Shown here in pieces: positions 51,493 to 60,055 of a stretch of DNA of 64,000 nt. The DNA lies in contig NZ_MRCD01000005.1 in NCBI RefSeq assembly GCF_001904745.1, positions 124,001-188,000 on the forward strand, given 5' to 3'. The stretch is from Calothrix sp. HK-06. GTDB lineage: Bacteria > Cyanobacteriota > Cyanobacteriia > Cyanobacteriales > Nostocaceae. The number at the start of each line of letters is the position of its first letter. The first letter of the stretch is position 1. A model generated the notes under the pieces. The model was not told the origin of the DNA. It did no database searches and saw only the letters and a list, made by a program, of their open reading frames with translations. The position numbers were made by a program, and so were the translations under genes.

Positions 51493-51831
51493 ATGCTGCT
51501 TAAGTCAACAACCCGGCACATCCGTATTTTTGCGGCAGAATTAGACGCATCTGGGGAATTGGTACCCAGCAGTCAAGTTTTAACGCTGGACGTTGACCCC
51601 GATAACGAATTTAATTGGAGCGAGGATGCCCTACAACAGGTTTATCGCAAATTCGACGAATATGTCGAAGCTTCCGCAGGTAGTGACCTTACCGACTATA
51701 ACCTCCGTCGCATCGGCTCAGATTTAGAACATTTAATCCGCTCACTTCTACAAAAGGGTGAAATTAGCTACAACCTAAATGCCCGTGTTGCTAACTACAG
51801 CATGGGTCTTCCCCGCGTTGAGGCACAATAA
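51493..51831 (+). CDS. ndhM: NAD(P)H-quinone oxidoreductase subunit M
   Basis: A 112-residue subunit specific to the photosynthetic NDH-1 complex, in the hydrophilic arm on the cytoplasmic side of thylakoids, needed for cyclic electron flow and respiration. [59 protein letters not shown] and [10 protein letters not shown] match NdhM. The frame opens at 51478, but homology starts at MLLKSTTRH and GGAAGA lies seven bases before 51493. Confidence 0.95.
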
Positions 51832-51835
51832 TTTT

Positions 51836-51863
51836 GTAGAGACGCGAAATTTCGCGTCTCTAC
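51836..51863. repeat. Perfect GTAGAGACGCGAAA palindrome after ndhM
   Basis: GTAGAGACGCGAAA/TTTCGCGTCTCTAC, a 28-base perfect palindrome five bases after the ndhM stop and 23 bases before the next start. Variant of the GTAGAGACG family. Confidence 0.8.
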
Positions 51864-51886
51864 GAAATTTATTAAAACTTTTAACT

Positions 51887-53251
51887 ATGTTCAAATTCAC
51901 CTTAATGTTAGCTGTTATTTCGCTACTAAGCGTTTCGCAAGTGCAAGCTGCCGAACTTGTTGGACGGGCAATTTTAGCGGCTGATACATTTGCTCCTGGA
52001 TCTACTAGTGGGCAGTTTAAAAAGACTCAACGTACTACCCCTTTTTTATTTGCTCAACCAGTACAAGGATTTTCGTGTGTTGAGCTTGGGCCGAAAGAGG
52101 GTACATTTTACGTGATTTCAGATAATGGGTTTGGCGCCAAAAGTAATTCTTTAGATTCTGTGCTGCGGATATACGCGGTTGAACCAGATTTTTTTACGGG
52201 CAAAGTATATCCTGTAGATTTTCAAACGGGAGAGCGACTTGTGCGGTTTAGTCGCCAAAGCTTTATTGAACTCAACGACCGTAACAAAAAAGCGAATTTT
52301 TCTACTGTCGCAGAGCAAGTAAATTACCCTTTAAGTAATATTGCTGTGTCGCAGCGAATCAAAATCAATCGCTTGCTCACAGGTGGTGACTTTGACCCAG
52401 AATCTTTTCGGCGCCTAGAAGATGGTAGTTTTTGGGTAGGAGATGAGTTTGGCCCGTTTTTACTACATTTTGATAAAACTGGTGAACTACTGGCGCCTCC
52501 CATACCACTACCAAATTTTGCACAAAAAGGTACCGAAGAATTTGTGAAATCTCCTGATAACCCAGAATTTGCATCGTTTCCAGAACCGAAGCGTACAAGT
52601 GAAGCTAACTTGGGCGGTTCTAGCGGTTTTGAAGGTTTAGCGATTAATACAAGTAAGACAAAGCTGTATGCAATGTTAGAAGGTGTACTAAAAAAAGATG
52701 TGCCTACTCGTTTGTTGATTAATGAGTTTGATATAGCCAATCAAAAATATACAGGCAGGGTTTTTGCATACAAGTTAGAAAATGCAAGTCATGCCATTGG
52801 CGAATTAACTGCGGTTAACGATAACGAATATATTGTGATTGAACGGGATAAGAATCAAGGCGACCCCAATAATCCGGCTTTTAAAACACCTGCCTCGTTC
52901 AAGCGTCTTTACAAAATTAATCTTGACAAAGTAAATAAAGCAGGTTTTGTAGAAAAAGAATTATTATTAGATTTGCTGAATATTTCTGACCCCAAGGGTA
53001 TTGGTACAAATGCCACTAAAAACGGTGTGTTCGCATTTCCCTTTGTAACGATTGAGAGTGTACTGCCACTTGATGCTAGAACGCTGCTGGTAATTAACGA
53101 TAATAACTATGCCGATAGCATTGGGCGAATACCGAAACAAGCTGATAACACCGAATTCATTAAAATCAAGCTAGACACACCTTTGAACTTAACTGTTACT
53201 AGTGGCACCACTGCCTCTATGAGACAAAATGCCTACTCCGATTCTAAATAA
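51887..53251 (+). CDS. Secreted esterase-like phytase-family protein
   Basis: A 454-residue exported protein with signal peptide MFKFTLMLAVISLLSVSQVQ (cleavage after QA near residue 21). The mature part matches the esterase-like activity of phytase domain, a beta-propeller-like fold: FSCVELGPKEGTFYVISDNG, GGDFDPESFRRLEDGSFWVG, DEFGPFLLHFDKTGE and SSGFEGLAINTSKTKLYAML, then ELTAVNDNEYIVIERD. It probably releases phosphate from organic esters in the periplasm. The frame opens at 51779 inside ndhM, but the signal peptide supports 51887. Confidence 0.85.
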   Translation: MFKFTLMLAVISLLSVSQVQAAELVGRAILAADTFAPGSTSGQFKKTQRTTPFLFAQPVQGFSCVELGPKEGTFYVISDNGFGAKSNSLDSVLRIYAVEPDFFTGKVYPVDFQTGERLVRFSRQSFIELNDRNKKANFSTVAEQVNYPLSNIAVSQRIKINRLLTGGDFDPESFRRLEDGSFWVGDEFGPFLLHFDKTGELLAPPIPLPNFAQKGTEEFVKSPDNPEFASFPEPKRTSEANLGGSSGFEGLAINTSKTKLYAMLEGVLKKDVPTRLLINEFDIANQKYTGRVFAYKLENASHAIGELTAVNDNEYIVIERDKNQGDPNNPAFKTPASFKRLYKINLDKVNKAGFVEKELLLDLLNISDPKGIGTNATKNGVFAFPFVTIESVLPLDARTLLVINDNNYADSIGRIPKQADNTEFIKIKLDTPLNLTVTSGTTASMRQNAYSDSK

Positions 53252-53498: not shown

Positions 53499-55802
53499 AT
53501 GGAACAAGATGCGGCAACGCTCCACTGCCCAAACGAACTTTGTCAGGCAGCCAATCCGCTTAAGCACAATTATTGTCAACAGTGTTCAACGCCTCTGCCG
53601 AAGCGTTATCTTTGGGCAGTCACAGAAGGAAAAAGTTTGGGAGTCTTGGGCAACCACATCGCCGATCGCTATTTAATTATTAGCCAGTTTGTTGTTCTAG
53701 ATACTAGACCCGGACTAGTCCCACAGGTACCAGACCAAGAATCGCTACAAAAGTTAAGACCCTATCTCCGTTTATTTCCTTACCGTTTACACGTTCCTCA
53801 AGTGTATGGAATCATTCCTAAAAGCGATTCGGAGATGCCTTCAAACATTTTGCTCTTAGAGAAACCACCGCTTCATATAAACACAGAACTCGAAGTGCAT
53901 TTGCATCAATCGTTGGACTTAGCATGGGGTGAAGCAACCTCAATGAGGCAGTTAAACTGGTTGTGGCAAATCGCACATATTTGGCAACCGTTGGCAAGTG
54001 AGGGGGTCGCGACTAGCTTGTTAGACCCTTCATTATTGCGACCCGAAGGCGGTTTAGTAAAAGTATTAGAATTACGCTCTGACCCTGAAATTGCTCCTTC
54101 TATCTCGCAATTAGGTGATTTTTGGCGCGTGAGTTTATTGCCAAACACAAAAAGTGCCATCAAAGAATTTTTTACCCAAGTTTGTGATGCTTTAATGTCG
54201 GGTGAAATTCATTCTGGTGAGCAGTTAGTTGCTGTTTTAGACCAAGGACTAATCTCACTTGGCGCCGCAAGTGGGGATATGTCTCAGTATTCAGTAAAAA
54301 TAGTTACAAACACTGATACAGGACCAAGCCGTCAGAGAAATGAAGATGCATGTTATCCGGCAGCAGGCAACATAATTAGCAAGCCACCATCACAAAAAGC
54401 TTTAGCAATTGTTTGTGATGGTATTGGTGGACATGAGGGTGGTAATGTTGCCTCGAATATTGCCATAGATGTAATTCAACAGCAAGTTAGTCAGTTAGCA
54501 TCAGTCCCTCGCGACCGTATCGACCCGACAGTTTTACTAGCTGACTTAGAAAAAGCGGCGGCAGCAGCAAACGATAAGATAGCTGTGCGAAATGATAGTG
54601 AGGGAAGACTTGGGCGCCAGCGGATGGGCACGACGTTAGTAATGGCGTTACCTATTGCCCACGAAATGTACATCACTCATGTAGGTGATAGCCGTGCGTA
54701 CTTAATTACACGCAAAGGATGCTACCAAGTCACCCTAGATGATGATGTAGCATCACGAGAAGTACGGCTCGGATATGCAGTTTACCGCGATGCCGTTATG
54801 CAAGGTGCCAGTGGTTCTTTAGTGCAAGCTTTGGGAATGGGTAGCAGTAACTCACTGCATCCAACGGCTCAAAGGTTTGTGCTAGATGAAGACTGTGTAT
54901 TTTTGTTATGTTCGGACGGTTTGAGCGACTTTGATAGAGTTGAACAATATTGGGAGACAGAAATATTACCGATTTTGACCGACGGTGTAGACATTACTGA
55001 AGCAGTCAATAATTTAATCGAAATAGCTAATAAGCAAAATGGACACGATAACGTTACAATTGCACTGGTTCAGTATCAAATAAAATACACAGAACCAGAA
55101 AAAATACAGATTCCCAATATCGCTGATTTATCCACGAATTATAAGTCAGGCAACTATTCTACCACTAGCGCGCCGACTAATTTGGTTTCAGGACACAGAA
55201 CACAAGTAATACCCGATACAGCCCAGGCAAAAAAACCGATACCTTTACATCTAATAGCACTGTTATCTGTGGTGACAGTGGGAGGTTTAATTGGGCTATT
55301 AATACAACAAATACTTTCTCGTCAAATTCAGCCAATTGGGACGACGACATCAACATCACCACCAGTTGCAACATCTCCAACTTCAGTAGAAAGAGTCGCA
55401 CCTCCCAAAGGTTCGTTAATTAGCGTCATATCCCCAATTGAATTTAGTCGCAAAAGTGAATATCAAGTAGCTGGTACTATTCCACAGAATACAACTTTAG
55501 TGGTTATAGACTCAAAACCAACAACAGACGCCTCCAAAAGCGACTTAATGCATTTGCAGGTTTGTCAAGTTCCCAAGCAAGAGGCAGAAGCACCCCCTGT
55601 TGCACAAAAAAAAGTGCCAATTATACAACGTGAAGAAATTTGGGTTCAAAGAGAAATACTTCAACCAAACAAGAACGTCTCAATATCTCAACCAGAGAAA
55701 AACGCTAATTCTCCATGTAATGCAATACTCAAGGAATCTACAAGCAGCAATATAGAAAAATCTCCCAATGCCAGAGAACGTCTTCGTCCACGCAATTTAT
55801 AA
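53499..55802 (+). CDS. PP2C-type Ser/Thr phosphatase with zinc ribbon and membrane anchor
   Basis: A 767-residue protein. Residues 10-29 form a four-Cys zinc ribbon (Cys10, Cys15, Cys26, Cys29). Residues about 50-250 are a region without catalytic motif that may derive from a kinase-like fold. A PP2C domain spans about 263-528 with all metal ligands: RNEDA (Asp283), CDGIGGHEGG (Asp307), CSDGLSD (Asp473) and GHDNVT (Asp517). One transmembrane helix follows (about 583-604), then a proline-rich tail presumably outside. It should dephosphorylate Ser/Thr proteins. It lies 85 bases upstream of the CHAT-FHA gene, probably one operon, so phosphothreonine made by a kinase would be both read (FHA) and erased (PP2C). 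Confidence 0.9.
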   Translation: MEQDAATLHCPNELCQAANPLKHNYCQQCSTPLPKRYLWAVTEGKSLGVLGNHIADRYLIISQFVVLDTRPGLVPQVPDQESLQKLRPYLRLFPYRLHVPQVYGIIPKSDSEMPSNILLLEKPPLHINTELEVHLHQSLDLAWGEATSMRQLNWLWQIAHIWQPLASEGVATSLLDPSLLRPEGGLVKVLELRSDPEIAPSISQLGDFWRVSLLPNTKSAIKEFFTQVCDALMSGEIHSGEQLVAVLDQGLISLGAASGDMSQYSVKIVTNTDTGPSRQRNEDACYPAAGNIISKPPSQKALAIVCDGIGGHEGGNVASNIAIDVIQQQVSQLASVPRDRIDPTVLLADLEKAAAAANDKIAVRNDSEGRLGRQRMGTTLVMALPIAHEMYITHVGDSRAYLITRKGCYQVTLDDDVASREVRLGYAVYRDAVMQGASGSLVQALGMGSSNSLHPTAQRFVLDEDCVFLLCSDGLSDFDRVEQYWETEILPILTDGVDITEAVNNLIEIANKQNGHDNVTIALVQYQIKYTEPEKIQIPNIADLSTNYKSGNYSTTSAPTNLVSGHRTQVIPDTAQAKKPIPLHLIALLSVVTVGGLIGLLIQQILSRQIQPIGTTTSTSPPVATSPTSVERVAPPKGSLISVISPIEFSRKSEYQVAGTIPQNTTLVVIDSKPTTDASKSDLMHLQVCQVPKQEAEAPPVAQKKVPIIQREEIWVQREILQPNKNVSISQPEKNANSPCNAILKESTSSNIEKSPNARERLRPRNL

Positions 55803-55887
55803 CCACTCCGTCATATAAACTAGTAGCAAACCTAAAATATTTTTATGGCGAATTCGGTTAAAACTATAAAGAGATAGACCCTAAAGA

Positions 55888-57483
55888 ATGCCCCTTGAAA
55901 CCATGCCATCCTTAAACCTGGCGATAGCCCGTCTAGTTCATGCTGGCACCAACAATTTCGCTATTTGGGTGGTGCGCGCTCCTTACTCTAGTGGGCACGT
56001 TTTTCACGATTGCGTTTGGACACCCAACCTGACACAAGTTTGGCAGGAATGGCAACAATTGTTTGCAGGTCACAGCAACCTTGATGTATCTCCCAACGCC
56101 AACGAATCTGATAAAATTCAATCGAATTACTCCTTACCAATCGAATTACCCCAACCCGCCACAGGACAACCAACTAATTACGCTGGGCGCCTGATGCAGT
56201 ACTTTGGTAACTGTTTATGGCAATGGGTATTCGATGGACCAATTTTAAATAGCTTAGAACACAGTCGAGGAATCGCAGCAGGACAAGAAAAAAGTCTCCG
56301 TCTGCGTCTAGAAATACGCGACCCCTATTTGGTATCGGTACCTTGGGAAATAATGCAGCGTCCCGGTCAAGCTGCAATTTCTCTAAGTCAAAACGTCATA
56401 TTTAGCCGTACCACCAGCGACGTTGACAAATTACCATCTTTACGTAGCGATGCTGGGTTAAATGTGTTGCTTGTGCTTGGCGATGACGAAAATCTCCAAC
56501 TTGAGGCTGAGGCTGAACTTTTAAAGCGAACCTTAACACAAGGTGCTGCCACTGGTAGCAACTCACGCGGTTACGCTCCATGTATCGTTACTAAACTAAT
56601 TCGCCCTACCCCTGAAGAATTAATCGCGGCATTAGAAACGCGGGCATATAACGTGTTTTTTTATGCTGGTCATGGCTTGCGTGGCCCAGATGGCGGCATA
56701 TTAAATCTACACCCCAAAGCTACACTCAACGGCATTGAGTTGGCTCAGGTATTAACGCGCACAGGTGTAAAACTAGCTGTTTTTAATTCGTGTTGGGGCG
56801 CCCAACCTTTGGCAGTTAATCATCAACCAATACCTTACAGCAGCTTGGCAGAAGTATTAATACGACATGGCGTACCAGCAGTATTGGGAATGCGCGACGA
56901 AATTGCCGACCATGAAAGTCTTAGCTTTATTCAAGCTTTCTCAGAAGCACTGCGTTCACGTCGAGCAATCGATGAAGCGGTAGCCGATGCTAGGCAAAAA
57001 CTACTATCTTTATATAAATTTAACCAACCTGGTTGGACACTACCCGTTCTTTATTTACATCCAGAGTTTGACGGGCAATTAATTCGCAGCTTAGACGAGA
57101 GCATTACCGAATTACCGACTTCTCTACCAGAATTTAGAAAAACATTTCCTGCTGCTTCACTGCGACTACTTACAGATGGAACAAAACAACTACTTCCAAC
57201 TCCCATCACCCGTATTGGTCGTACCACAGACAACAACATAATCATTCCCGATTTATCAGTTTCTAGACAACATGCTCAAATTATTTGTCGAGATAGTTTT
57301 ATTGACACAAAGTTAGAGCAAAGTTACTACTTACGTGATGATTCAACAGCAGGTACTTTAATATATCAGTCTGGAGCATGGCAACGAATTCATCATGAAG
57401 AAGTACCACTAAGGTCAGGAACGCAATTAAAATTTGGCAGTAGCCGTGGTGACATTTGGGAGTTTATGATTGAAAACTCATAG
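55888..57483 (+). CDS. CHAT protease fused to C-terminal FHA domain
   Basis: A 531-residue protein. The CHAT (caspase-like, clan CD) domain covers about 190-395 with the His in FFYAGHG (His262) and Cys in FNSCWGAQP (Cys302), so the dyad is intact. A C-terminal FHA domain (about 440-530) has ITRIGRTTDNN, SVSRQHAQ (Arg445, Ser458, His462), the residues that contact phosphothreonine. The N-terminal 190 residues are a further region with WEIMQRPG. It should be a protease recruited or activated by a phosphorylated partner. Located after the PP2C gene, same strand. Confidence 0.92.
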   Translation: MPLETMPSLNLAIARLVHAGTNNFAIWVVRAPYSSGHVFHDCVWTPNLTQVWQEWQQLFAGHSNLDVSPNANESDKIQSNYSLPIELPQPATGQPTNYAGRLMQYFGNCLWQWVFDGPILNSLEHSRGIAAGQEKSLRLRLEIRDPYLVSVPWEIMQRPGQAAISLSQNVIFSRTTSDVDKLPSLRSDAGLNVLLVLGDDENLQLEAEAELLKRTLTQGAATGSNSRGYAPCIVTKLIRPTPEELIAALETRAYNVFFYAGHGLRGPDGGILNLHPKATLNGIELAQVLTRTGVKLAVFNSCWGAQPLAVNHQPIPYSSLAEVLIRHGVPAVLGMRDEIADHESLSFIQAFSEALRSRRAIDEAVADARQKLLSLYKFNQPGWTLPVLYLHPEFDGQLIRSLDESITELPTSLPEFRKTFPAASLRLLTDGTKQLLPTPITRIGRTTDNNIIIPDLSVSRQHAQIICRDSFIDTKLEQSYYLRDDSTAGTLIYQSGAWQRIHHEEVPLRSGTQLKFGSSRGDIWEFMIENS

Positions 57484-57701
57484 ACAGTTTGTCAAAAATG
57501 CATGAAATTACTCTTGACATAATTAGATTTTTATTTAAAACATATTATTTCAACGTATTATTCTGTGAGTATCACTTAAATATTTTGTATCATACAAAAA
57601 CAATACGCGATCATTTTATTCGTTTTGCGGAAAGGCTCGCATTTATGCTGTAGCTCTTGGTACACAAACAAATTAAACCATCCAATAAGGAAAGCCTAGA
57701 A

Positions 57702-58346
57702 ATGACTCACACAAAAAACGACGCACTTAACAGATCAGAGTTTCAACCATCTGCAATTCACCTAGAGTTGCTCGAAGCATTACTCGAAACCGACGAAGCA
57801 ACATACCCCTGGAACCCAGCATCACCCGAATCAGAAGATTTCTTTCATCAATGTGACGCGCATTTTGCCATTGATGAACTTCTCGAAGTTGATGGAAACG
57901 GGCGCCAAGAAGCTTTTTATAGCCATCTTGATACTCTGTGGTCTAACACACCAACCTTGCAATCTCAATGTAGCACAACTGTAGTATCTATATCCAAACT
58001 TAAAGAAAGTTTACAATCAGCGATTTCTTCCCGGATTCCTCACGAATGGATAGAGAAGATAGCACACAAAGCAAGTGATTTATTTAATTCGCCAATGTCA
58101 ATAGCAGATCAATTAGTAGAAATTGCCGCATCTGTAGTGCCCGCTTTAGGCACCGATGATTTATCAGTACTAGCGCGTCCATATGCGTATGCAATGCGTA
58201 GTGAAGCAACCACACTAGAATCAACACTTAAAAAAGTGGGTGGACACGACTGGAATAATTTATCAGAAATCGAGCAAGCGCGGGTGAGTGTAGCAGTAGC
58301 TTACTACGCACTCCAACAACTCAAAAAATCTCAAGCAATAGACTAA
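57702..58346 (+). CDS. Unknown protein in the CHAT-FHA neighbourhood
   Basis: A 214-residue acidic, helical, soluble protein that I do not recognise. Notable segments are IHLELLEALLETDEATYPWN, FFHQCDAHFAIDELLEVDG and DDLSVLARPYAYAMRSEATT, and a stretch of alpha-helical heptads near the end. The frame opens at 57657 on a TTG; AAGGAAA ten bases before the ATG at 57702 favours that start. Same strand as the PP2C and CHAT-FHA genes, but 218 bases from the latter. It could be a substrate or adaptor of the protease; this is a guess from position. Confidence 0.6.
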   Translation: MTHTKNDALNRSEFQPSAIHLELLEALLETDEATYPWNPASPESEDFFHQCDAHFAIDELLEVDGNGRQEAFYSHLDTLWSNTPTLQSQCSTTVVSISKLKESLQSAISSRIPHEWIEKIAHKASDLFNSPMSIADQLVEIAASVVPALGTDDLSVLARPYAYAMRSEATTLESTLKKVGGHDWNNLSEIEQARVSVAVAYYALQQLKKSQAID

Positions 58347-58647
58347 GTGCTTGGTAAACAAGATGATAAAACGCGATTTAGTATCAGGTGCAGGGTGTCG
58401 CTAGATTCGATTTAATCAAATTGACGTTTGATGGGAATATATTTTAGTAATACTCCAAGAGCATCTTGCACTGATTATGTAATCAAATTCTATAATCAAG
58501 AATACACAAAGACCATTTCACTATTTTAAATCTAACTATAGACTCTTGTGCTGTAACAACTATCTATCAAAAGATAGAATTAAAGTTAAAGCAAAACAGT
58601 AAAGTAATGCAATTCAGGTTATGAGTGAGTCATATGAATATCAAAAT

Positions 58648-58680
58648 AAAAAGCAACCGGGAAAACCCAGTCGCTTTTTT
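58648..58680 (-). terminator. Terminator at the end of the FHA-PrsW gene
   Basis: AAAAAGC-AACCGGG-AAAA-CCCAGTCGCTTTTTT forms an imperfect stem flanked by A and T runs, so it can work in both directions. It overlaps the stop codon of the minus-strand gene. The gap 58347-58647 shows nothing else. Confidence 0.85.
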
Positions 58681-60055
58681 ATTTTCTTTCTAAAAAACGT
58701 GTAGCAAAATTTTGTGAACGGTTTGGAGAAAGAGCGCGTGCTTTGAGAATAGCAGCCATCAAAAATGCGTATGAAATTACACCAACAACAACTAGTAACA
58801 AAGCATTAATAGCTCCAGAAGCATTCCATAAAGCATGAAGCGCGGCCGCAGTTAAGTAACCCACAATTAAAATTCGTACCCCCCTACTTGGTTTAAGAAC
58901 AGCTAAACCAATGAAATATCCTAAATAACCGCTATAAGCCATATGGCCAGCGACTAATCCTAATATTCGGGGAATTAAAAGCTGTAACCCTACCAATTGT
59001 CCAGCATCGGCACCCGATTGTTGTGCAACACTTAATGTAATTTGTGGTACATATTGACCAAGTGTTTCCAACAGAGTAAAACCAACTGCCGAAGCAGTGC
59101 CAAGTAGAATACCATCTAGAGGTTCAGAGACACCAAGTCGTTCACGCCAAGGAGAAGGAAGCGTTCTTGATATTAAAAATATACCCAAAACAGGCAAAGC
59201 TTTGAGTAATTCCTCCATTAAGCCGGCGCCGAAAAACATCCGCACAAGTAATTCAGTTAAGGTAATTTCCTGATTTTCTCTGGGTAAATTACCTGGTAGA
59301 ACAACACGGAATATATAAATAAATAAATCTAAAATAGGGCTTTTTAAAATTATCGCCGTCCCCAAAGCAGAAGCTAGTAATATCCACCAAGGTTTGTGCT
59401 TGCCACACAAACGATAAATAAAATAATATGCAGCAGAAGCAATATAAGTACCAACAATAACTTGATTAGCTTGCGGCGAACCAACCGTAGCAAACATTAA
59501 CACTACAAATACAACAGTTAAGATACCAGGGATTAAAAAAGCTTTGCTAGTTAAATCCTTTCCGGTTGAGATAATTGGGAACAACTGTGTAAAGCTTACA
59601 GAATCTATTTGTGTTGGTGCCTCATATTTGCTTGCGGGGGTGAGTGAAGTAGCGGCAGCGGAATTAATAGCAGTTTGTTGATGAGCATTATTTTCATATT
59701 CAAACTGAAATATGGGGCCATCCTGTGCTAAAGAAATGCGGTCACCAGAATGTAACTCTTGACAACCCTCAAGACGCTGCCCATTAAGGTAAGTACCATT
59801 AGCACTACTAAGGTCACAAATCACCCAACTGCATCGACCATCAGGGGAAGGAGAAATGGAACGAACAACCGCATGGCGCCGTGATACCATCCGAAACTTA
59901 ATGGCATCCAAAGCAATTTGACAACCAGGGTCGCGTCCAATTACCACCTCTCGATTTTTGAGTAGCGCATAATTCGACTCAGACCCACTAGGTACTCCAT
60001 TACCAGACACTAGCCGTAGAAAAGCATTCGTCAACGGCACGTTTTTGCCTGTCAT
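58679..60055 (-). CDS. FHA domain fused to PrsW intramembrane protease
   Basis: A 458-residue protein. An N-terminal FHA domain (about 30-115) has VVIGRDPGCQ (Arg41), VSRRHAVVR (Ser58, His61) and SSANGTYLNG (Asn86), all pThr-binding positions. Residues about 170-440 are a multi-helix membrane domain with the PrsW (M82) motifs: EELLK (Glu281, Glu282, Lys285), LLETLGQY (Glu330), GHMAYSGYLGY (His371) and LHALWN (His407). PrsW cleaves anti-sigma factors within or near the membrane in Bacillus. Here phosphothreonine binding would gate it. It converges on the CHAT-FHA gene group. Confidence 0.9.
   Translation of the reverse strand: MTGKNVPLTNAFLRLVSGNGVPSGSESNYALLKNREVVIGRDPGCQIALDAIKFRMVSRRHAVVRSISPSPDGRCSWVICDLSSANGTYLNGQRLEGCQELHSGDRISLAQDGPIFQFEYENNAHQQTAINSAAATSLTPASKYEAPTQIDSVSFTQLFPIISTGKDLTSKAFLIPGILTVVFVVLMFATVGSPQANQVIVGTYIASAAYYFIYRLCGKHKPWWILLASALGTAIILKSPILDLFIYIFRVVLPGNLPRENQEITLTELLVRMFFGAGLMEELLKALPVLGIFLISRTLPSPWRERLGVSEPLDGILLGTASAVGFTLLETLGQYVPQITLSVAQQSGADAGQLVGLQLLIPRILGLVAGHMAYSGYLGYFIGLAVLKPSRGVRILIVGYLTAAALHALWNASGAINALLLVVVGVISYAFLMAAILKARALSPNRSQNFATRFLERK

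What the first reader, a model, noticed from the sequence alone, without database searches (positions are those of the whole stretch)
53499..60055. Phosphothreonine-gated protease neighbourhood: PP2C, CHAT-FHA, unknown, FHA-PrsW
Four genes combine a membrane-anchored zinc-ribbon PP2C phosphatase, a CHAT protease with intact His262/Cys302 and a C-terminal FHA, an unknown protein, and an FHA-gated PrsW intramembrane protease. All FHA pThr-contact residues are present in both. A kinase signal could be read by both proteases and erased by the phosphatase, giving a phospho-controlled proteolytic switch. I know of no described system with this composition.
Basis: partly seen in the sequence, partly recalled or inferred. 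Interest (0 to 1): 0.75.

Follow-up and report, generated by a model that had tools for sequence, protein, structure and literature searches.

The report
Conserved phospho-reading protease gene cluster, cyanobacteria
A phosphatase, a caspase-like protease that carries a phosphothreonine-reading domain, a small helical protein of unknown function and an intramembrane protease sit together in many cyanobacteria; the caspase-like protease and the unknown protein were rarely found without each other, which suggests an undescribed signalling module.

Summary
The four genes are real and the domain calls hold, with corrections. The CHAT-linked FHA domain lacks the usual asparagine (STAGT, not NGT); the PrsW gene is convergent, so it is outside any operon of the others; the phosphatase has an extra stretch that may be a dead kinase-like domain. 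The neighbourhood is conserved: 72 of 80 loci from the CHAT-FHA scan (nearly all Nostocales) hold all four genes, 5 more lack only PrsW, and two genomes outside the window's order hold complete clusters. In 386 genomes the CHAT-FHA protease and the unclassified 214-residue helical protein co-occur (86 both, 3 and 1 alone, 296 neither), even where the genes lie apart; PP2C and PrsW-FHA are less tied. A [KR]T[QK][VIL][VIL] motif about 14 residues before the phosphatase's membrane helix is kept in 65 of 74 of those loci; outside the family, a looser form chosen after seeing the data is in 16 of 39 genomes with CHAT-FHA and 0 of 29 without. Best reading: a kinase phosphorylates this threonine, FHA brings the CHAT protease to the membrane, it processes its partner, and the attached phosphatase resets it; PrsW-FHA is a looser member. 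The CHAT-FHA/unknown association is well supported; the mechanism is inference.

The parts
53499..55802 (+). PP2C-type phosphatase, 767 aa: Cys4 zinc ribbon, possibly kinase-like (dead) domain, PP2C domain, juxtamembrane linker, one membrane helix, C-terminal part (presumably extracytoplasmic) with two conserved Cys
   Evidence: PP2C_2 44.5 bits; NCBIfam PRK14559 246 bits, below its cut-off of 374
53526..53585 (+). zinc ribbon, Cys10/15/26/29
   Evidence: the four Cys are invariant in 13 aligned orthologues; Pfam DZR only E 0.082
53616..54284 (+). putative pseudokinase-like domain, residues 40-262; no HRD, DFG or beta3-Lys equivalents by eye
   Evidence: AF2 secondary-structure order (pLDDT 50); 27 of 43 Foldseek PDB matches are kinase folds by title, none significant; hhalign in register but Prob 1.7%, and nothing with the narrower alignment
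54285..55088 (+). PP2C catalytic domain with conserved motifs (DGIGGH, GDSR, SDGL, GHDN)
55197..55211 (+). juxtamembrane motif R-T568-Q-V-I, candidate phosphothreonine docking site
55245..55319 (+). approximate membrane helix
   Evidence: hydropathy read from the sequence
55888..57483 (+). CHAT-FHA protease, 531 aa
56671..56673 (+). catalytic His262 codon
56791..56793 (+). catalytic Cys302 codon
57208..57438 (+). FHA domain of the CHAT protease; Arg445, Ser459, His462 kept, canonical Asn absent
57702..58346 (+). unclassified helical protein, 214 aa, strongly co-occurring partner of CHAT-FHA
58679..60055 (-). FHA-PrsW intramembrane protease, 458 aa, convergent
59729..59947 (-). FHA domain of PrsW, canonical (GR, SRRH, SANGT)
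58748..59395 (-). PrsW protease domain with EExxK, FTLLET, GHMAYSGY, LHALWN motifs

Best explanation
The cluster encodes a cyanobacterial phosphothreonine-controlled proteolysis module. Shown by comparison: PP2C, CHAT-FHA, the 214-residue protein and a convergent PrsW-FHA gene form a conserved neighbourhood; CHAT-FHA and the 214-residue protein are nearly always present or absent together; the phosphatase's linker carries a positioned Thr motif that, outside the family, was found only in genomes with CHAT-FHA and mostly where PrsW-FHA is present too. Inferred: one of the cell's many Hanks-type kinases phosphorylates that Thr (T568) near the membrane; the FHA domain of the CHAT protease docks there and activates or positions the protease, whose dedicated target (or adaptor/inhibitor) is the 214-residue protein, as HetF acts on PatU3 and Csx29 on Csx30; the PP2C domain of the same anchor removes the phosphate and resets the switch; PrsW-FHA acts as a looser second protease in the membrane. 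The kinase-like and C-terminal parts of the phosphatase would sense the input.
For: 72 of 80 loci hold all four in the same order and orientation; of the other 8, two are stand-alone paralogues, five lack only PrsW (three of them, L040, L041 and L045, at contig ends), one lacks PP2C. Complete clusters outside the family in G008, G058, G168 (same order) and G011, G056 (outside the order). CHAT-FHA and the unknown: 86 both, 3 unknown only, 1 CHAT only, 296 neither of 386; families f5 and f9 hold members with both and members with neither. In 19 of 43 genomes outside the family the two genes are not adjacent in the assembly, yet both are kept. CHAT dyad kept in 26 of 27 diverse sequences. Motif: strict form in 65 of 74 linkers of the scan loci (3 of 77 had no linker found) against 0.4% in shuffles, Thr 13.9 +/- 2.4 residues before the hydrophobic stretch; outside the family 10 of 39 CHAT+ and 0 of 29 CHAT-; looser form 16 of 39 and 0 of 29, and 14 of 23 where PrsW is present too. 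In G005 CHAT-FHA is reduced to a 53-residue FHA remnant between PP2C and the unknown, and the motif is absent too. Precedent: HetF, a CHAT protease, cleaves PatU3 (PMC12288457, passages).
Against: No binding, phosphorylation or cleavage data. The CHAT FHA domain lacks the canonical Asn. The unknown protein has no invariant Thr and no known fold; substrate, adaptor or inhibitor cannot be told apart. The motif association is not corrected for phylogeny; the looser pattern was chosen after seeing the sequences; contrasts inside families are weak (f9: G207 with CHAT lacks the motif like G054/G079 without; f12: G107 and G119 both lack it); CHAT- genomes G066, G292 and G342 have KTE or KTQ variants and G033 a QTE one; 23 of 39 CHAT+ genomes outside the family fail even the looser pattern. 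Much of the flank is syntenic as well in the scan loci (an ndhM match in 73 and a response-regulator match in 68 of 80). Kinase-likeness of the phosphatase N-terminus is unproven.
Confidence: 0.37

Rival explanations
1. Tight two-gene system only: CHAT-FHA plus the 214-residue protein work together (protease and substrate, inhibitor or adaptor), and PP2C and PrsW-FHA are old neighbours with jobs of their own.
For: Jaccard 0.956 for the pair against 0.69 (CHAT with PP2C) and 0.66 (CHAT with PrsW); 37 PP2C genomes and 14 PrsW genomes lack CHAT-FHA; the pair stays adjacent in genomes where PP2C is elsewhere (G002, G039, G062, G095, G191, G199, G294, G316, G332, G350).
Against: PP2C and CHAT-FHA are adjacent in 14 of the 43 genomes outside the family that hold both, and PrsW lies convergent next to the unknown in G005, G008, G011, G056, G058, G168, G209 and G225 (read by eye from the tables); the linker motif tracks CHAT-FHA and PrsW.
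Confidence: 0.35
2. Inherited synteny without shared function: slow rearrangement next to ndhM keeps the genes together.
For: In the 80 scan loci ndhM matches in 73, the response regulator in 68 and PfpI in 43 (several loci are cut by contig ends); ndhM also lies beside the cluster in some distant genomes.
Against: The near-perfect co-occurrence of CHAT-FHA and the unknown, with retention when unlinked, is not explained by synteny; complete clusters recur outside the order.
Confidence: 0.13
3. A regulated cell-death or conflict module: CHAT-FHA is a caspase-like effector released on stress or infection, held by the 214-residue protein as inhibitor.
For: In Calothrix NIES-4105 and FI2-JRJ7 a CHAT-FHA paralogue with an extra N-terminal part sits beside another CHAT gene (L012) and, in L013, a Trypco1 and an AAA+ gene, a setting that recalls the MoxR-vWA ternary conflict systems of PMC7159879 (passages); membership was not tested.
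Against: The core gene gives one strong match per genome, is conserved beyond the family and changes slowly (81% mean pairwise identity in the scan loci); none of the four window proteins has a PADLOC match at E 0.01. Conflict effectors are usually more variable (recalled).
Confidence: 0.1

Closest known systems
HetF-PatU3 (Anabaena CHAT protease and its target)
   Same: CHAT protease in the same kind of organism; the CHAT parts are related (HetF model 161 bits); protease with a smaller partner
   Different: far below the HetF cut-off of 1200 bits; FHA instead of TPR and membrane parts; a true HetF is encoded elsewhere in the same genome (G000:C58, 1413 bits)
Craspase / Csx29-Csx30 (type III-E CRISPR)
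   Same: CHAT protease gated by a sensor, with a dedicated target protein that inhibits a sigma factor (PMC10028731, abstract, introduction and section list)
   Different: RNA-guided gating, no FHA or PP2C; the unknown here is not known to hold a sigma factor
PrsW (anti-sigma protease) and PrsW-FHA fusions
   Same: PrsW domain 128 bits; fusion of PrsW to FHA was noted in 2012 (PMC3482391, passages)
   Different: below the curated PrsW equivalog cut-off (22.2 of 225 bits); the unknown protein matched no Pfam or NCBIfam model, so no anti-sigma factor was recognised among the four
PRK14559-type cyanobacterial PP2C phosphatases
   Same: 246 bits, best stretch residues 264-531
   Different: below cut-off 374; longer than the 642-position model, with a membrane helix and C-terminal part; most genomes with the gene hold a second PP2C match that was not compared with PRK14559
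StkP juxtamembrane phosphothreonine signalling
   Same: phosphorylated juxtamembrane Thr proposed as protein docking site, reset by a PP2C-type phosphatase (PMC12077195, passages)
   Different: there the anchor is the kinase and FHA domains are absent; here the anchor would be the phosphatase

Membership tests
CHAT (caspase-like) protease | CHAT domain over the Pfam cut-off with His/Cys dyad | tested here: met
   70.4 bits against 24; H262 and C302
CHAT (caspase-like) protease | proteolytic activity | not testable with these tools
   no assay
HetF | NCBIfam HetF equivalog score | tested here: not met
   161 bits against 1200; another gene of this genome meets it with 1413
phosphothreonine-binding FHA (CHAT protein) | Arg, Ser, His and NGT contact residues (residue roles recalled) | tested here: inconclusive
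   Arg445, Ser459, His462 present; Asn absent here and in 25 of 27 aligned sequences
phosphothreonine-binding FHA (PrsW protein) | Arg, Ser, His and NGT contact residues (residue roles recalled) | tested here: met
   GR, SR.H and NGT in the 18 of 19 aligned sequences that cover the region
PrsW intramembrane protease | PrsW domain and four conserved motifs | tested here: met
   128 bits against 23.5; EExxK, FTLxET, GHxAYSGY, LHxLWN conserved
PrsW equivalog (anti-sigma protease) | NCBIfam NF033739 cut-off | tested here: not met
   22.2 bits against 225
PP2C phosphatase | PP2C domain with metal-ligand motifs | tested here: met
   44.5 bits against 24; motifs conserved
pseudokinase | kinase fold without catalytic residues | tested here: inconclusive
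   AF2 pLDDT 50 and 27 of 43 Foldseek matches kinase folds, none significant; hhalign Prob 1.7% with a broad alignment, 0.2% with the narrow one, no better than controls of 0.1-0.5%
known defence systems (PADLOC) | PADLOC model match for any of the four proteins | tested here: not met
   0 families at E 0.01

The most novel reading that the evidence does not exclude
A new class of bacterial proteolytic switch: a membrane-anchored pseudokinase-phosphatase carries its own phosphothreonine docking site, an FHA-guided caspase-like protease reads it and cleaves one dedicated helical partner of an unclassified family, and a second FHA-guided intramembrane protease takes part in the same circuit, conserved in cyanobacteria beyond a single order.
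Probability: 0.2. Interest if true: 0.85.

Novelty: new variant of a known kind. Interest (0 to 1): 0.6.

Why it matters
This genome has 68 CHAT-domain matches, and I recall inputs or targets for few CHAT proteases. A strongly co-occurring, unclassified partner gives a direct candidate target for one of them, and a conserved Thr near the membrane gives a direct test of how Hanks-type kinases (93 matches here) could control proteolysis.

Tried and rejected
Single operon of all four: rejected, PrsW is convergent. Linked kinase: none of the 93 kinase matches of the genome lies in the window. Known fold for the unknown protein: AF2 pLDDT 70.9, pTM 0.50; Foldseek best E 0.42, none at 0.001; PDB sequence search only Rab GTPases at E 0.17 or worse, taken as chance. 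Extra recurrent partner: of the ten neighbours scanned, seven lie beside unlinked copies (pol III delta, CorA, LysR-type regulator, DUF1800, histidine kinase, porphobilinogen deaminase, histidine-biosynthesis gene) and three beside linked ones; no family recurred. Conserved Thr in the unknown protein as FHA ligand: none invariant. A [TS]QLFP stretch before the first PrsW membrane helix resembles the phosphatase motif, but Thr alternates with Ser (L100, L101); not followed. Mean pairwise identity (120 sampled locus pairs): PP2C 70.2, CHAT-FHA 81.0, unknown 61.7, PrsW 85.1; distance correlations 0.85-0.93, which shared phylogeny would give too, were not used as evidence. hhalign against kinases failed with the narrow alignment and in global mode.

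Rows left out or choices made: L001-L007 were not in the synteny script; L023, L082 and loci without all four genes were not in the identity sample; 3 of 77 loci with PP2C had no linker found; G089 and G237 had no membrane helix found, leaving 68 sequences outside the family for the motif count (58 of the 60 fetched, nine CHAT+ cluster loci and the CHAT- locus L110), not all 123 genomes with a PP2C match. CHAT-only matches at E 1e-40 to 1e-52 in long frames were not counted as CHAT-FHA; I took them as HetF-like from frame length and tested only the window genome's one, which is a true HetF. G033, G044 and G203 have only such matches and were counted as CHAT-. Handles and adjacency lists were copied by hand from the tables into the scripts. 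PP2C presence rests on E 1e-45 with two candidates scored per genome, so orthologue and paralogue may be mixed in genomes without the cluster. Contig breaks may hide adjacency. Literature: searches listed, by title and start of abstract, no paper on this four-part system; passages of PMC4389566 and PMC8406250 were also seen.

The odds did not need changing.
Full report
What is there. The window lies in a ~10 Mb cyanobacterial genome (G000); the nearest named relatives by CHAT-FHA identity are Calothrix sp. PCC 7716 and Dulcicalothrix desertica PCC 7102 (99%). The four genes are at the stated coordinates with the stated domains. The third gene is 57702-58346, 214 aa. PrsW is convergent with a terminator-like hairpin just after its stop, so it is not in an operon with the other three. 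Gaps: PP2C to CHAT 85 bp, CHAT to unknown 218 bp (coordinates); in the scan loci the medians are 148 and 151 bp, and 298 bp between the convergent stops. Whether the first three are co-transcribed was not shown; the promoter scan found no more sites than shuffles.

Domain corrections. The CHAT His262/Cys302 dyad is present in 26 of 27 diverse sequences and in 79 of the 80 scan loci, lost only in paralogue L013. The CHAT FHA domain keeps Arg445, Ser459 and His462, but the residue that is Asn in canonical NGT motifs is Ala here and Tyr, Phe or other in most relatives, Asn only in L104 and L106; Arg is lost in L100 and His in L101. The contact roles are recalled from Rad53-type FHA domains. PDB profile matches place it near Rv1747, EmbR and Dun1 FHA domains. 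The PrsW FHA domain is canonical. The phosphatase has a Cys4 ribbon, a PP2C domain with the expected motifs, one membrane helix and a C-terminal part with two invariant Cys. Its residues 40-262 may be a degenerate kinase: AF2 gives a kinase-like order of strands and helices at low confidence (pLDDT 50); by my reading of the titles, 27 of the 43 Foldseek matches are kinase folds, none significant, against 0 of the 50 listed for the unknown protein. hhalign against 28 kinases of the same genome gave nothing with the narrow alignment (Prob 0.2%; controls 0.1-0.5%), and with a broader one aligned in register but weakly (Prob 1.7%). I call it suggestive.

Conservation. The CHAT-FHA scan found 119 relatives and kept the best 80; by title nearly all are Nostocales, L077 is an unclassified cyanobacterium. 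Of these 80 loci, 72 hold PP2C, CHAT-FHA, unknown and PrsW together, five lack only PrsW (three at contig ends), one lacks PP2C, two are stand-alone paralogues; PrsW is convergent in all 73 loci that have it with the unknown. ndhM (73 of 80) and a response regulator (68 of 80) match in the same loci, so depth matters. In 386 genomes drawn from the phylum: unknown 89, CHAT-FHA 87, PrsW-FHA 81, PP2C 123 genomes. CHAT-FHA and unknown: 86 both, 3 unknown only (G005, G119, G203), 1 CHAT only (G233, on a 14 kb contig), 296 neither; outside the window's family 43, 3, 1. The other five pairs have Jaccard 0.66-0.71. Families f5 and f9 contain members with both and members with neither, which fits joint loss (no tree was built). 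Complete clusters occur outside the family in G008, G058, G168, and outside the order in G011 and G056 (families f18, f22); PP2C-CHAT-unknown triples in G027, G181, G193, G211, G285, G304, G356. CHAT and the unknown are adjacent in 24 of 43 genomes outside the family and not in 19. In G209 the cluster is split into PP2C-CHAT and unknown-PrsW pairs. In G005 only a 53-residue remnant of the end of CHAT-FHA lies between PP2C and the unknown. G203 lacks CHAT-FHA where its genus-mate G002 has it next to the unknown.

A candidate phospho-site. In the poorly conserved linker between PP2C domain and membrane helix, the scan loci keep [KR]T[QK][VIL][VIL] (65 of 74 linkers; shuffled linkers 0.4%), Thr 13.9 +/- 2.4 residues before the hydrophobic stretch. 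In 68 orthologues from outside the family the strict form occurs in 10 of 39 with CHAT-FHA and 0 of 29 without; a looser form, defined after seeing the sequences, in 16 of 39 and 0 of 29 (Fisher 2.8e-5 by genome, 0.0012 with one vote per genus and CHAT state), and in 14 of 23 with both CHAT-FHA and PrsW, 2 of 16 with CHAT-FHA only, 0 of 11 with PrsW only, 0 of 18 with neither. A still looser form, T[QKE][VIL] followed by one of eight residues, gives 19 of 39 and 6 of 29. Against: no phylogenetic correction; contrasts within families f9 and f12 show no difference; 23 of 39 CHAT+ genomes outside the family fail the looser pattern. It is a testable lead, not proof.

The unknown protein. It has no family over cut-off, is all-helical by AF2 (pLDDT 70.9, pTM 0.50) with a low-confidence stretch at 84-92, no similar fold found, recurrent motifs around YPWNP, LARPxAxAMR and LSEIEQA, and has the lowest mean pairwise identity of the four (61.7% against 70-85%). 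It gives one match per genome in the 386-genome survey apart from hits split into two adjacent pieces.

Mechanism. Step by step: co-retention of protease and partner (shown by distribution); proteolytic activity (family knowledge, intact dyad); partner as target (inferred by analogy with HetF-PatU3, PMC12288457, and Csx29-Csx30, PMC10028731); phosphorylation of T568, FHA docking, reset by the attached PP2C (inferred); PrsW-FHA as member (weak: convergent, different distribution). The cognate kinase is unknown; the genome has 93 kinase-domain matches and 22 FHA matches.

Known or new. The domain families PP2C, CHAT, FHA and PrsW are known, and PrsW-FHA fusions were noted in 2012 (PMC3482391). 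A true HetF is encoded elsewhere in the genome (1413 bits), so CHAT-FHA is a different CHAT protein. None of my library searches listed a paper on the combination. I rate it a new variant of a known kind, with the CHAT-FHA/unknown pair as the strongest finding.

Noticed in passing
L012:9446-11575, L013:9363-11590: In Calothrix sp. NIES-4105 (L012) and FI2-JRJ7 (L013) a CHAT-FHA paralogue has an extra N-terminal part (fused in L012, in a separate frame in L013) and lies beside another CHAT gene (L012) and Trypco1 and AAA+ genes (L013); the L013 copy has lost both catalytic residues.
   Followed up: partly
G000:C45:123255-124415: A second PrsW-like frame (447 aa) with an FHA match exists elsewhere in the same genome.
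   Followed up: no
G000:C178:34116-36015 and G000:C111:49643-54759: PP2C, FHA and kinase-domain matches lie within a few kb of each other, possible other phospho-signalling clusters.
   Followed up: no
window 51779-53251: A phytase/esterase-like gene lies between ndhM and the phosphatase in the four nearest loci (L008-L011) and had no match in the other 76 loci; the listed ORF start overlaps the end of ndhM.
   Followed up: no
L103:6211-6774: A peptide deformylase gene lies beyond PrsW in G168; genes of like size, not identified, sit beyond PrsW in L105, L109, L110 and L119.
   Followed up: no
window PrsW residues 152-165 (minus strand): A stretch SVSFTQLFPIISTG, nearly invariant in 13 aligned orthologues, precedes the first PrsW membrane helix and resembles the phosphatase Thr motif; Thr is Ser in L100 and L101.
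   Followed up: partly
L110:9184-9342: Remnant of the FHA end of a lost CHAT-FHA gene between PP2C and the unknown gene in G005.
   Followed up: yes
G000:C58 (L230:1360-3903): A HetF of 847 aa, 1413 bits against the cut-off of 1200, in the window's genome.
   Followed up: yes
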